A stretch of DNA of 32,029 bases from Chlorobiaceae bacterium (GTDB lineage Bacteria; Bacteroidota; Ignavibacteria; Ignavibacteriales; Ignavibacteriaceae), in NCBI GenBank assembly GCA_013824085.1, contig PNNF01000025.1, forward strand, positions 1 through 32,029, read 5' to 3'. How positions within the stretch are numbered: position 1 is the first letter of the stretch; each line of letters starts with the position of its first letter. Positions 5,108 through 8,834 of this stretch are shown in pieces. The notes beneath the pieces were generated by a model. The model ran no database searches. It was not told the origin of the DNA and saw only the letters and a program-made list of their open reading frames with translations. A program made the translations under genes and the position numbers.

Positions 5108-5977
5108 TTGAAAAATCAATTTGAATATTTTCTCTTTATTATTTTTAGTAAATTATTTTGTTTTATAGGGCTAAAAAAATCTCGAAAATTTGTGAATTTT
5201 TTAGTCCTAATTTTTTATAGAATATTGAAATTAAGAAGACGTGTAACAGAAGAGAATTTACAAAAAGCTTTCCCGAATTTATCCAAAAAAGAAATTGATG
5301 AACTAACTTTAAAGTCTTATCAAAATTTTGCTATCTGTCTGATCGAAATTTTATCAATGCCAGCAGTTACATCTGAATCAATTAAAGAGATAGTAAAAAT
5401 TGCGAACATTGAATTGCTAAATAAAAAATATGATGAAGGAAAAGGTGTAATACTTTTATCGGCTCATTTTAACAATTGGGAATATGCAGCACTTGCAGCG
5501 GGATTTTATGCTAAAGAAAATATTAATGTTGTTGTCAAACATTTACGAAATCCTTTCGTTGACAAGTGGATGAATGATTGTAGAACAAAATTTAATAACA
5601 AAACAATTCCTCTCGGTGTTTCTATTCGACATATTTTTGCTGCTATTAAAGAAAAAAAAATTGTAGGTATTATCGCTGATCAACGCGGACCTAAAGAAGG
5701 AATAAAAATTAATTTTTTTAATAACAATACTTCAGTTTATTCAGGCCCAGCAGTGTTGGCATTAAAAATGGGAGCGCCTTTAATTATGGGTTTACCAGTA
5801 AGGCAACCAGATTACTCATATTTAGTCGAGCTTGCTGAAATCAACCAAGAGAATTTACCAGAAGATGAGAATGAAAAAATAAAAGAAATTTGTCAAAGAC
5901 AATTTAATAATTTAGAAATGATGATTAAAAAAAATCCTGCAAGTTGGTTTTGGATGCATAATATTTGGAAGTATTGA
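5108..5977 (+). CDS. LpxL/HtrB-type lysophospholipid acyltransferase
   Basis: The 289-residue protein belongs to the lipid A (Kdo2-lipid IVA) acyltransferase family, membrane-bound enzymes that transfer an acyl chain from acyl-ACP to the lipid A precursor. The N-terminus has hydrophobic anchor segments, then RRVTEENLQKAFPN, typical of the family. The catalytic HX4E motif is HFNNWE (H120, E125). IADQRG near residue 189 and GPAVLALKMGAPLI are the next conserved blocks. The start is TTG (5108): no ATG lies nearby and the N-terminus fits the family. The stop codon overlaps the next start (TGATG), suggesting translational coupling with the GT9 gene. The exact acceptor cannot be told from sequence. 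Confidence 0.88.
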   Translation: MKNQFEYFLFIIFSKLFCFIGLKKSRKFVNFLVLIFYRILKLRRRVTEENLQKAFPNLSKKEIDELTLKSYQNFAICLIEILSMPAVTSESIKEIVKIANIELLNKKYDEGKGVILLSAHFNNWEYAALAAGFYAKENINVVVKHLRNPFVDKWMNDCRTKFNNKTIPLGVSIRHIFAAIKEKKIVGIIADQRGPKEGIKINFFNNNTSVYSGPAVLALKMGAPLIMGLPVRQPDYSYLVELAEINQENLPEDENEKIKEICQRQFNNLEMMIKKNPASWFWMHNIWKY

Positions 5978-6993
5978 TGAATAGAATTTTAGTAATTCAA
6001 TCAGCGTTTATTGGTGATGCAATTTTAAGTTTACCGATGATTCAAGAATTAAAAAAAAGAGATGAGAATTTATTAATCGACGTAATCTGTATTGAAAAAA
6101 CTTTTGAAATTTTTTCTTCATCACCATTTGTTAATGAAGTTTTTATTTTAGATAAAAAGAAAAAACATAACTCTATTTTTTCCTTAAATAAATTTGCTAA
6201 AGAAATTTCAGAAAAAAATTATTCCGAAATAATTACTCCGCATCGTTCAATCAGAACTTGCTTGTTGGTTATGTTGATTAACGCACCGAGAAAAATTGGT
6301 TTTACGAATAGTGCAATTCCATTTGTATTTACAGAAGTTAAAAAATATAATTACGATTTCCATGAAGTGAAAAGAAATTTATGCCTAATTAATTATTCAT
6401 TTGAAAATGAAAATTGGAAAATTCAGCCATTAATAAATTCTGAAAAAGCAGTAAAAGAAAAAATTGATATTCTTATTTCAGAAAATAAATTAAATGAGTT
6501 CATCGCAATTGCTCCAGGTACAGAATGGGAAACTAAGCAATACCCAAGTGAGAATTTTTCACTACTGATTGAAGAGCTTTCTAAAAATCATAAGATTATT
6601 TTAATCGGTAGCGAAAAAGAGACTGAATTATGTGAAGAAATAATTTCAAAAAGTTCTAGTTCGGTTATAAATTTGGCAGGTAAATTATCGATAGTTGAAA
6701 CTATTGAATTGTTAAGAAAAACTAAATTGCTAATTTCAAATGATAGTGCACCAACTCACTTTGCTATGGCTGCAGATATTAAAGTATTAACAATTTATTG
6801 TTCAACGTCTCCTAAGTTTGGATTTTATCCTTATAATTCAAAAAGTAGATTTTTGAGTTTGGATAATTTGAGATGTAAGCCCTGTGGTATTCACGGTTAC
6901 AAAGAATGTCCATTAAATAATTTTGAGTGTGGCAATAAGTTAGAAGTGAAAGATGTTTTGAGAACAGCAAATGAGATGTTAAATGAAAAATAA
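5977..6993 (+). CDS. Glycosyltransferase family 9 (heptosyltransferase-like)
   Basis: The start is set at ATG 5977, which overlaps the previous stop as TGATG; an in-frame TTG at 5965 would add four unconserved residues. The 338-residue product opens with MNRILVIQSAFIGDAILSLP, the GT9 N-terminal Rossmann start. APGTEWETKQYP and SNDSAPTHFAMA are the C-domain motifs for the nucleotide-sugar site. Family members add heptose or related sugars to the LPS inner core on the cytoplasmic side. A Cys-rich segment (CKPCGIHGYKECP) near the C-terminus matches the CxxC...C seen in many GT9 enzymes. Next to a lipid A-type acyltransferase, an LPS or glycolipid core role is likely; the sugar is unknown. Confidence 0.88.
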   Translation: MNRILVIQSAFIGDAILSLPMIQELKKRDENLLIDVICIEKTFEIFSSSPFVNEVFILDKKKKHNSIFSLNKFAKEISEKNYSEIITPHRSIRTCLLVMLINAPRKIGFTNSAIPFVFTEVKKYNYDFHEVKRNLCLINYSFENENWKIQPLINSEKAVKEKIDILISENKLNEFIAIAPGTEWETKQYPSENFSLLIEELSKNHKIILIGSEKETELCEEIISKSSSSVINLAGKLSIVETIELLRKTKLLISNDSAPTHFAMAADIKVLTIYCSTSPKFGFYPYNSKSRFLSLDNLRCKPCGIHGYKECPLNNFECGNKLEVKDVLRTANEMLNEK

Positions 6994-7627
6994 TTTAGCT
7001 ACAAAAACATTGTTAGTCGATGACGCTAATGCGAATTCAGTAGTTGAAGCAGTATCTATTCTGAAGAATGGTGGAATATTTATTTCTACTTCTGATACTG
7101 GTTATCGATTTTTTTTGGACTCGAAAAAAGAAACTTACGACCAATTTTTTAGAATCACTCGAAAAAAAATAGATGAAGAAGCAATTTATTTTGTTGGGAG
7201 CATTGAAATTCTAAGAAAAAATATTTTATTGTTCGATGACAAAATGTTTGATTTCTTAATTTCAGTTTGGCCAAATCCAATTTCAATAAAATTTAATTTA
7301 AGTAAAGATGGGAAAAAAAATCTCAACAAAGAGAGTGCATTTTTTAGAATTCCCAATAATAATTTTTGTCTTAAATTTTTATCAGCTTATGATTCGCCCG
7401 TATTGACAAGCGATGCTGTTCGGAAAAATGAACCAATTCATAATGACTTCACATTTTTGAATGAAGAATTTAATAGCGAAGTGGAAGCAATCTTTTATAC
7501 AAAGAAAAAAATTTTCGACCAGTTCCCAACTACAATTGACTTGACAACAGACCGACCAATATTGGTAAATGAAGGCAAGTATAAATTTTCTACAATTGAA
7601 AAAAAATTTATAGAGTGTTATGGATAA
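6983..7627 (+). CDS. Degenerate Sua5/YciO-like protein
   Basis: The 214-residue product follows the Sua5/YciO/TsaC fold order: GGIFISTSDTGYRF (residues 30-43) in place of the usual PTDTVYG block, FLISVWPNPISI in place of the WPGP block, FRIPN in place of VRVP, SPVLTSDAVRKNEP in place of the S-x-SAN-x-SGEP block, and TTIDLTTDRPILVNEG in place of the STIVDL...REG end. Several residues that bind substrate in TsaC are changed: the KRP...PL block reads RKKIDEEAIYF and SAN reads SDA. Normal threonylcarbamoyl-AMP synthesis for tRNA t6A is therefore doubtful. It may be a YciO-like paralogue or an inactive relative. It overlaps both neighbours by about 10 nt, so it is translated within the envelope operon. 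Confidence 0.7.
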   Translation: MKNNLATKTLLVDDANANSVVEAVSILKNGGIFISTSDTGYRFFLDSKKETYDQFFRITRKKIDEEAIYFVGSIEILRKNILLFDDKMFDFLISVWPNPISIKFNLSKDGKKNLNKESAFFRIPNNNFCLKFLSAYDSPVLTSDAVRKNEPIHNDFTFLNEEFNSEVEAIFYTKKKIFDQFPTTIDLTTDRPILVNEGKYKFSTIEKKFIECYG

Positions 7628-8456
7628 AATATCTGTCACATTAGAATATTTCAAAAAAAAAATAAAACGACTTTTCGATATTTTTAGTTTCTCACTTTTA
7701 GTAGTTCCAGAGTCATCTACTTCGTTGGTAAGAAGTAAAAAAATTAATTCAAAAAAAATATCGCTTTTATTTTTTTTCTTTTTTGTTTCAATTTTTTTAG
7801 TCTCATTTCTCTTCTTCAAATATACTCCAGCAAATTCTATGTTGGGAAATGTTGACCGCGAATTTTCTACATCAGAAGAAGAAATGATTCACAATCTTAA
7901 TCAGAGAGTATTGACCTTGTTGAATGAATTAGATCAGCTAAAAAAATCTAATGAAAATTTGAGGAAGGCAATCGAGTTAGCAGACCCAACTTTATTGAAT
8001 AATAAAAAAGATACGCCTAAAGTTGGTGGTAATGTTCAGAGAGTCTTTTTTGATTTTATCGAAAAATATTTTTTTGATTCCGAAAATGTAATTTTTCATA
8101 GACCGATGCAAGGCTTTAGAAGTAGAGGATTTGAACCAACTAAAGGACATTTTGGAATCGACTATTCAGCAAAAGAAGGAACTCCAATTTTTGCAACGAC
8201 AAATGGATATGTCATATTTTCAGATTATACTGTGGATGATGGGTTTATGATAATTCTTGCTCACGCAGAAGGTTATCTCTCATTTTACAAACATTGTTCG
8301 CAGTTACTAAAAAAAGAAAGAGATATTGTTACGCAGGGAGAAATAATTGCTTTAAGTGGTAATTCAGGATATCAAACTTCTGGTCCACATTTGCATTTTG
8401 AAATTTGGAAAGATGGTATGCCAATTGATCCAGAAAAAATTTTAGTTAAATTTTAG
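7620..8456 (+). CDS. M23 (LytM-type) peptidase, membrane-anchored
   Basis: The 278-residue protein has a cytoplasmic N-terminus rich in Lys, a single very hydrophobic transmembrane segment (about residues 47-67), a predicted short coiled coil (about 82-110) and a C-terminal M23 domain. The zinc site is intact: HFGID gives H177 and D181, and PHLHFE gives H257 and H259. M23 enzymes cut peptide cross-links in peptidoglycan, here facing the periplasm. The gene overlaps the previous stop by 8 nt and is followed within 9 nt by a bactofilin gene. M23-bactofilin pairs are known from other bacteria, where they shape the cell, so a morphogenesis role is the best inference. Confidence 0.88.
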   Translation: MDKISVTLEYFKKKIKRLFDIFSFSLLVVPESSTSLVRSKKINSKKISLLFFFFFVSIFLVSFLFFKYTPANSMLGNVDREFSTSEEEMIHNLNQRVLTLLNELDQLKKSNENLRKAIELADPTLLNNKKDTPKVGGNVQRVFFDFIEKYFFDSENVIFHRPMQGFRSRGFEPTKGHFGIDYSAKEGTPIFATTNGYVIFSDYTVDDGFMIILAHAEGYLSFYKHCSQLLKKERDIVTQGEIIALSGNSGYQTSGPHLHFEIWKDGMPIDPEKILVKF

Positions 8457-8465
8457 AGGTATAGA

Positions 8466-8834
8466 ATGAAGTTAATCGGAAGTAACGCACCATTAGATGG
8501 AATCAGTATTATCAGTGTTGGCGTGGATATCGAAGGGAACATAAGCGCAAATAGTGATATCAGAATTGATGGAAAAGTCAAAGGAAACGTTGCATCGACA
8601 GGAAATATTATTCTTGGAGATAAGGGAGTAATTATCGGTGACATCAGAGGGAAGAATGTAACAATCGCGGGACAAGTGCAAGGGACTGTTCACTCGGATT
8701 CAAAAATTATGTTAGAAGCGACTTCTGCTTTAAAGGGAGATATTATTTCCAAAATACTCGTCGTTCAAGAAGGAGCTAGGTTTGAAGGAAAAAGTGAAGT
8801 GACCAAAGGCTCAGAAAATGTTAAGCCCAAATGA
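8466..8834 (+). CDS. Bactofilin (polymer-forming cytoskeletal protein)
   Basis: The 122-residue protein is a run of short beta turns with regular hydrophobic/glycine spacing (IEGNISANSDIRIDGKVKG, then GDIRGKNVTIAGQVQGTV), the bactofilin right-handed beta-helix pattern. Bactofilins polymerise without nucleotides into membrane-associated filaments and recruit cell-wall enzymes. The N-terminal tail is short and the protein is near the lower end of family length. GAGG 8-12 nt upstream is a plausible ribosome binding site. The 3' end overlaps the AtpZ-like start by 17 nt, so it is co-translated with the ATP synthase cluster. Its likely partner is the M23 peptidase immediately upstream. Confidence 0.88.
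   Translation: MKLIGSNAPLDGISIISVGVDIEGNISANSDIRIDGKVKGNVASTGNIILGDKGVIIGDIRGKNVTIAGQVQGTVHSDSKIMLEATSALKGDIISKILVVQEGARFEGKSEVTKGSENVKPK

What the first reader, a model, noticed from the sequence alone, without database searches (positions are those of the whole stretch)
6983..7627. Sua5/YciO-like protein with nearly every nucleotide-binding motif altered
The fold order is kept but PTDTVYG reads STSDTGYR, the KRP...PL block reads RKKIDEEAIYF and SAN reads SDA. It is fixed in frame inside an LPS/cell-wall operon, overlapping both neighbours. A retained but non-canonical TsaC relative may have a new ligand or a structural role.
Basis: partly seen in the sequence, partly recalled or inferred. 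Interest (0 to 1): 0.5.

Follow-up and report, generated by a model that had tools for sequence, protein, structure and literature searches.

The report
Disabled tRNA-modification enzyme kept in operon
This gene is the leftover of an enzyme needed to modify tRNAs: its catalytic residues are gone and a replacement gene from elsewhere has apparently taken over the job, yet it still reads as an intact protein inside a cell-envelope operon, which makes it a snapshot of one essential enzyme displacing another.

Summary
ORF 6983-7627 (214 aa) is a TsaC/YrdC-fold protein whose KxR/SxN catalytic tetrad reads T-x-K / D-x-V, and it overlaps both neighbours in an envelope operon. It is the syntenic orthologue of the TsaC of its family (Ignavibacteriaceae, inferred from named relatives). 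In genomes without a detected long-form Sua5, 73 of 73 operon copies keep the ten catalytic-site positions compared (67 KxR, 6 KxK). The window genome has a complete long-form Sua5 (contig C26, 335 aa), foreign by phylogeny and placed beside a native ETF operon, plus YciO and TsaB/D/E genes. Relatives with Sua5 show other stages: both intact (3 genomes), operon TsaC damaged (1), operon TsaC absent (2), unknown (1). Four genomes of another genus carry an extra TsaC copy that lost most of the tetrad yet is conserved (dN/dS 0.08-0.17) in a polysaccharide cluster. Best reading: a catalytically dead TsaC, made redundant by an acquired Sua5, still open and predicted to fold. Whether it has a new role is open: its frame is kept beyond chance, but its residue pattern cannot be told from drift in an open frame. 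New variant of a known kind (TsaC/Sua5 displacement).

The parts
6983..7627 (+). tsaC orthologue with a lost KxR/SxN tetrad (catalytically dead TsaC)
   Evidence: model
7085..7108 (+). STSDTGYR (residues 35-42), where typical operon copies read YPTDTIYG
7157..7165 (+). T59-R60-K61 in place of KxR (EcTsaC K50, R52)
7409..7420 (+). S143-D144-A145-V146 in place of T-S-x-N (EcTsaC T138, S139, N141)
7568..7570 (+). N196 in place of the invariant Arg (EcTsaC R188)
5108..5977 (+). lipid A acyltransferase (LpxL family), operon member
5965..6993 (+). heptosyltransferase (GT9), overlaps the ORF by 11 nt
7620..8456 (+). M23 peptidase, overlaps the ORF by 8 nt
8466..8834 (+). bactofilin-like protein, conserved downstream neighbour (name from recall; conservation by BLAST)

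Best explanation
The ORF is the operon-encoded TsaC (L-threonylcarbamoyl-AMP synthase) of this bacterial family after it was made redundant. The lineage acquired a long-form Sua5 (contig C26), which now makes TC-AMP for TsaB/D/E. Freed of that constraint, the operon copy lost the residues at the positions that hold ATP, threonine and TC-AMP (K50T, S139D, N141V, R188N, P26T, G32R and the tolerated R52K, EcTsaC numbering) and can no longer make TC-AMP, while the reading frame, and by prediction the fold, is kept and translated within the envelope operon. Shown: orthology, loss of the tetrad, an intact Sua5 and TsaB/D/E genes, foreign ancestry and position of that Sua5, and the series of stages in relatives. 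Inferred: loss of activity, and Sua5 having taken over. Undecided (about even): passive relict kept open by operon coupling, or folded non-catalytic protein with its own use.
For: Synteny: Hept directly before TsaC in 29 of 29 relative loci and M23 after it in 26 of 29 (of the 3 others one ends at the contig end, L014 and L032 show no M23); Hept and M23 in 18 of 18 further loci. At 10 positions 73 of 73 operon copies from genomes without detected long Sua5 read PTGK[R/K]RTSNR; the window reads TSRTKRSDVN and the own Sua5 PTGKRRPSNR; absence of Sua5_C in those genomes was checked. Own Sua5 has PF01300 + PF03481 and a PGM...HY stretch. TsaD, a TsaB-like second match and TsaE present. Own Sua5 groups with families outside its class (SH-aLRT 99), and one clade of the family's Sua5 is rejected (AU p 2.9e-52). 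It sits directly 5' of an ETF operon that the 5 relatives fetched carry without Sua5 (5 of the 15 genomes with the dehydrogenase at 65-79%), and the 79% identity to G008 speaks for a native contig. Other stages: G002, G004, G052 both intact; G040 damaged; G008 and G033 have Hept directly followed by M23. Excess divergence against the neighbour gene.
Against: No biochemistry: catalysis with an altered tetrad is not excluded, and one of the four tetrad changes (R to K) occurs in 6 sole copies. The frame is intact although drift to this divergence would meet about 10 stops, so it is not simply rotting. G002, G004 and G052 keep both enzymes intact, so Sua5 does not always bring loss. The order of Sua5 gain and TsaC loss is not dated. 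The host lineage is itself long: end branch 0.75 against a median of 0.23 on the neighbour-protein tree, so part of the TsaC divergence (2.09 against 0.31) is general. The model was built with canonical relatives in the alignment, so its confidence says little about whether this very sequence folds.
Confidence: 0.82

Rival explanations
1. Retained pseudoenzyme (a sub-reading of the best explanation): after losing catalysis the protein keeps a selected, non-catalytic role (binding a partner, an RNA or an envelope-precursor enzyme) in the envelope operon, as the extra copies of genus g4 seem to do in a polysaccharide cluster.
For: Open frame although drift would meet about 10 stops, 0 of 348 simulations with none; one 1-aa gap and no insertion against the family. 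Four g4 genomes keep an extra copy lacking most of the tetrad, 52-71% identical to each other, dN/dS 0.08-0.17 in the 4 of 6 pairs with an estimate, with the same five neighbours in all four stretches. Over the four degenerate copies compared, family-specific conserved columns are kept 43 of 48 and pan-family columns 53 of 92 (counts, Fisher p 9.5e-5).
Against: For the window protein alone the retention does not exceed frame-open drift: family-specific 9 of 12 (P 0.15), hydrophobic 50 of 59 (P 0.55), BLOSUM similarity (P 0.10); Fisher alone p 0.28. The same holds for G040 (similarity P 0.09). The gene is absent from the same operon in G008 and G033. The copies in the pooled test are partly related to each other.
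Confidence: 0.4
2. Passive relict (the other sub-reading): the protein has no use; the frame stays open only because translation through it is needed for the overlapping M23 gene (translational coupling, polarity).
For: Overlaps of 11 and 8 nt with both neighbours. Residue pattern as in frame-open drift. Excess divergence: median identity to the other operon copies 34.3% against 48.0% for the heptosyltransferase, difference -13.7; 74 others mean +0.8, sd 3.7, lowest -9.55.
Against: Codon-position GC 34.6/29.0/22.9 keeps the order seen in the neighbours, though this is weak. G008 and G033 show that the operon can drop the gene. Conserved dead copies in genus g4.
Confidence: 0.42
3. Divergent but still active TsaC.
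For: Fold predicted intact, best structural match TsaC2 with substrates. R-to-K in the tetrad occurs in 6 sole copies. D38, T39 and R122 are kept.
Against: K50, S139 and N141 all replaced, plus R188, P26, T27, G32 and T138, none of which varies in the 73 sole copies; a complete Sua5 is present.
Confidence: 0.06
4. New catalytic specificity (another adenylate or carbamoyl chemistry, as in HypF or TobZ).
For: YrdC domains do serve other carbamoyl adenylations (PMC9654439, passage seen); envelope-sugar neighbourhood.
Against: TobZ and HypF keep the KxR/SxN centre (same passage); here it is lost. None of the 81 other copies compared shares the altered residues as a set.
Confidence: 0.04

Closest known systems
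TsaC (YrdC), L-threonylcarbamoyl-AMP synthase, single-domain form
   Same: Fold, length, operon orthology to canonical copies
   Different: KxR/SxN tetrad and the P26, T27, G32, T138, R188 positions changed
Sua5 / TsaC2 (PF01300 + PF03481)
   Same: Shared catalytic-domain fold; T. maritima TsaC2 9dsv Z 24.4, rmsd 2.4, 203 aligned
   Different: No SUA5 domain listed for the ORF; the genome's own Sua5 is on C26
YciO
   Same: YciO too is a TsaC paralogue described as inactive (PMC10321239, passage); 1k7j Z 23.3
   Different: The genome has its own YciO (188 bits to E. coli YciO) while the window ORF scores 49 bits
TsaC/Sua5 displacement by horizontal transfer (PMC10321239; sections 13 and 14 read, other passages seen)
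   Same: Acquired Sua5 in a TsaC lineage
   Different: The paper tells of loss of the endogenous gene and of few species with both; here the old gene persists as an open, tetrad-less ORF, with related genomes at other stages

Membership tests
PF01300 Sua5/YciO/YrdC domain | Pfam gathering score 25.1 | tested here: met
   51.4 bits
TsaC, TC-AMP synthase | NCBIfam TIGR00057 cut-off 123.2 | tested here: not met
   64.4 bits
TsaC, TC-AMP synthase | KxR/SxN catalytic tetrad (PMC10321239, PMC9654439) | tested here: not met
   T-x-K and D-x-V
TsaC, TC-AMP synthase | Orthology and synteny with canonical copies | tested here: met
TsaC, TC-AMP synthase | TC-AMP formation | not testable with these tools
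   needs an assay
Sua5 / TsaC2 | C-terminal SUA5 domain PF03481 | tested here: not met
   not listed for the ORF at E up to 1; in the own genome the one match lies in the C26 gene
YciO | Groups with YciO rather than with operon TsaC | tested here: not met
   49 bits to EcYciO against 167-196 for complete YciO loci (two partial copies, L097 139 and L099 88); YciO, Sua5 and E. coli rows separate from the rest at SH-aLRT 99

The most novel reading that the evidence does not exclude
In this family the TsaC fold carries a second, non-catalytic role in envelope or polysaccharide synthesis, so that when TC-AMP synthesis is covered by another gene the active site may be lost while the protein is kept: three times (window genome, G040, and the extra copies of genus g4).
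Probability: 0.3. Interest if true: 0.68.

Novelty: new variant of a known kind. Interest (0 to 1): 0.45.

Why it matters
TC-AMP synthesis serves the universal t6A modification of tRNA. How one isofunctional enzyme replaces another is usually seen only after the old gene has gone. Here one bacterial family shows both-intact, damaged and deleted stages at a fixed operon position, so the order of events and the cost of keeping both enzymes become testable. The tetrad-less copies kept under purifying selection in genus g4 are candidate TsaC pseudoenzymes.

Tried and rejected
The idea that the window's scaffold residues are preserved beyond drift was tested and not shown. The YN00 method failed on every pair, and NG86 gave no dS for 2 of 6 degenerate and 4 of 6 canonical pairs, so the ratios rest on the rest and on large dS. 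In one search one row (G120_f19) was wrongly counted with the family because of its name; its clade test is discarded and one search replaces it. Sequencing artefact: the differences are spread over the protein with one 1-aa gap, unlike a frameshift error. Contamination of C26: judged unlikely. YciO identity: rejected. Rows dropped: L099 (119 aa) and identical duplicates; 3 of 78 loci for missing or short genes. In 7 of the 80 family genomes no full-length operon copy was recovered: G008 and G033 have the locus without the gene; in G058 it is broken after about 144 codons; in G114, G024, G042 and G051 neither it nor the operon heptosyltransferase was found, state unknown. The list was capped, so the presence of long Sua5 was checked again with PF03481. 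Papers looked at without use: PMC7102964 (passages).

Full report
What is there. The ORF at 6983-7627 is real: 214 codons, start overlapping the heptosyltransferase end by 11 nt, end overlapping the M23 start by 8 nt. Neighbours are a lipid A acyltransferase, a GT9 heptosyltransferase and an M23 peptidase, then a bactofilin-like gene and ATP synthase genes (these names from recall). The protein meets PF01300 (51.4 bits) but fails the TC-AMP synthase model TIGR00057 (64.4 against 123.2 bits). AlphaFold gives pLDDT 93.9, and the best structural matches are T. maritima TsaC2 complexes, Z 24.4, rmsd 2.4 over 203 residues. The alignment held canonical relatives, so this says little about the stability of this very sequence.

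Whose orthologue it is. Searched with the ORF, 94 of 97 genomes have some match at E up to 1e-5; only the better-scoring class is orthologous. Around those hits Hept directly precedes TsaC in 29 of 29 relative loci and M23 follows in 26 of 29 (one of the three others ends at the contig end, L014 and L032 show no M23); Hept and M23 flank it in 18 of 18 further loci. By bits to E. coli proteins there are three classes: YciO (167-196 bits to EcYciO for complete loci; partial copies L097 139 and L099 88), long Sua5, and operon TsaC. YciO, Sua5 and E. coli rows separate from the operon class at SH-aLRT 99.

What is lost. At ten positions (EcTsaC 26, 27, 32, 50, 52, 117, 138, 139, 141, 188) 73 of 73 operon copies from genomes without a detected long Sua5 read PTGK[R/K]RTSNR, 67 with R and 6 (one genus, g26) with K at 52. 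These 73 include two copies of one genome with 8% contamination (G035) and four genomes of a sister family (f3). Absence of the Sua5_C domain was checked: it is found in 8 of 80 family genomes and in none of the four f3 genomes used. Some assemblies are incomplete, so absence is not proof. The window reads TSRTKRSDVN. That the tetrad is the catalytic centre is from PMC10321239 (sections 13 and 14 read, other passages seen) and PMC9654439 (two passages seen). Of 47 columns conserved in 58 typical copies the window keeps 25; typical copies keep 42-47.

Why it could be lost. The own genome holds two more PF01300 genes: a YciO on C15 and a 335-aa Sua5 on C26 with PF03481, an intact tetrad and a PGM...HY stretch. 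TsaD, a second, TsaB-like match and TsaE are present. Long Sua5 occurs in 152 of 198 genomes drawn from the phylum, but in the family only in G000, G002, G004, G008, G033, G040, G052 and G114 (the G114 gene is cut by its contig end). These eight do not form a clade (AU p 2.9e-52; five label changes forced by well-supported branches); the window genome's copy groups at SH-aLRT 99 with families of the phylum outside its class (kinship). On a tree of five operon proteins (81 rows) the seven Sua5-positive rows need six changes, at least five forced. In the window genome Sua5 lies immediately 5' of ETF-beta/ETF-alpha/acyl-CoA dehydrogenase; the five relatives fetched for that block lack Sua5 there, five of the 15 others with the dehydrogenase at 65-79% identity. 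The dehydrogenase is 79% identical to G008, so the contig fits this family.

Stages. With Sua5 present the operon copy is intact at the ten positions in G002, G004 and G052, damaged in G040 (PSVKIRESNS), heavily damaged in the window, and absent in G008 and G033, where Hept is followed directly by M23; G114 is unknown. Counting also the four extra copies of genus g4, 6 of 9 redundant copies and 0 of 73 sole copies depart from the pattern (Fisher p 2.4e-7). The rows are related: the six stand for three separate losses, and the grouping was made after seeing the data.

The extra copies. G048, G056, G103 and G105 have an intact operon TsaC and a second copy that lost K, R and S of the tetrad and keeps the N. 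The four are 52-71% identical, with dN/dS 0.08-0.17 in the four pairs that gave an estimate and two pairs saturated. They stand in one conserved cluster: sigma-54 activator, CheW, DegT/DnrJ aminotransferase, the TsaC-like copy, sugar transferase, GFO/IDH/MocA oxidoreductase in all four stretches; a hexapeptide transferase in three and an SLBB/export gene in two, as far as the fetched stretches reach (Pfam names from G105 and, for SLBB, G048). So tetrad-less TsaC proteins can be kept by selection in this family.

Is the window copy kept for use? It has diverged far more than its neighbour gene (difference -13.7 points; 74 others mean +0.8, sd 3.7, lowest -9.55). The host lineage is long as well, 0.75 against a median of 0.23, but less than TsaC, 2.09 against 0.31. 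Simulated drift to the same divergence meets about 10 stops, and 0 of 348 runs meet none; the real protein has no stop, one 1-aa gap and no insertion. So the frame is held open. But which residues stayed is what open-frame drift gives: pan-family columns 12 of 23 (simulated mean 13.7), family-specific 9 of 12 (6.8, P 0.15), hydrophobic 50 of 59 (P 0.55), similarity P 0.10. G040 is likewise not distinguishable (similarity P 0.09; 66 of 324 runs meet no stop), while the two g4 copies simulated, L059 and L063, are more conservative than drift in similarity (P 0.017 and 0.014). The window protein therefore remains undecided between passive relict and pseudoenzyme.

Print. Searches for TsaC + pseudoenzyme, Ignavibacter + Sua5, and threonylcarbamoyladenylate synthase + paralog + inactive gave one, one and no papers: PMC12506659, of which I saw passages on YciO, and PMC7203096, seen in the listing only. 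Neither that, nor the listings, shows this case; the library is open-access only. Transfer of sua5 with loss of the old gene, and the rarity of both together, are known (PMC10321239). New here is the persisting, tetrad-less, still open old gene and the conserved extra copies of genus g4.

Noticed in passing
L161:3189-3845, L162:2891-3559, L165:3683-4324, L166:4012-4680: Second TsaC copy that lost K, R and S of the tetrad, conserved in four genomes of one genus inside a polysaccharide-type cluster with a sigma-54 activator and CheW upstream; dN/dS 0.08-0.17 where estimable.
   Followed up: partly
L022, L026, L029, L156-L158 (genus g26): In six operon TsaC copies of genomes without detected Sua5 the Arg of KxR is Lys, so KxK seems tolerated in an apparently working TsaC.
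   Followed up: no
L125:1475-1489, L126:2525-2529: In G008 and G033 the tsaC gene is missing from the operon; the heptosyltransferase is directly followed by M23.
   Followed up: yes
L124:2510-3206: In G058 (one contig, 80% complete) the operon tsaC is broken after about 144 codons and no long Sua5 was found; possibly a read error of that assembly.
   Followed up: no
L019:1459-2121 with L168:4825-5814: G040 has a half-damaged operon TsaC (R52 to I, T138 to E, R188 to S, G32 to V) together with a long Sua5; an intermediate stage.
   Followed up: partly
L014, L032: In these two loci no M23 gene was recognised after tsaC, unlike most relatives.
   Followed up: no
window:7382-7819 (-): A 145-aa reverse-strand ORF overlaps the end of the TsaC ORF; no evidence that it is a gene.
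   Followed up: no
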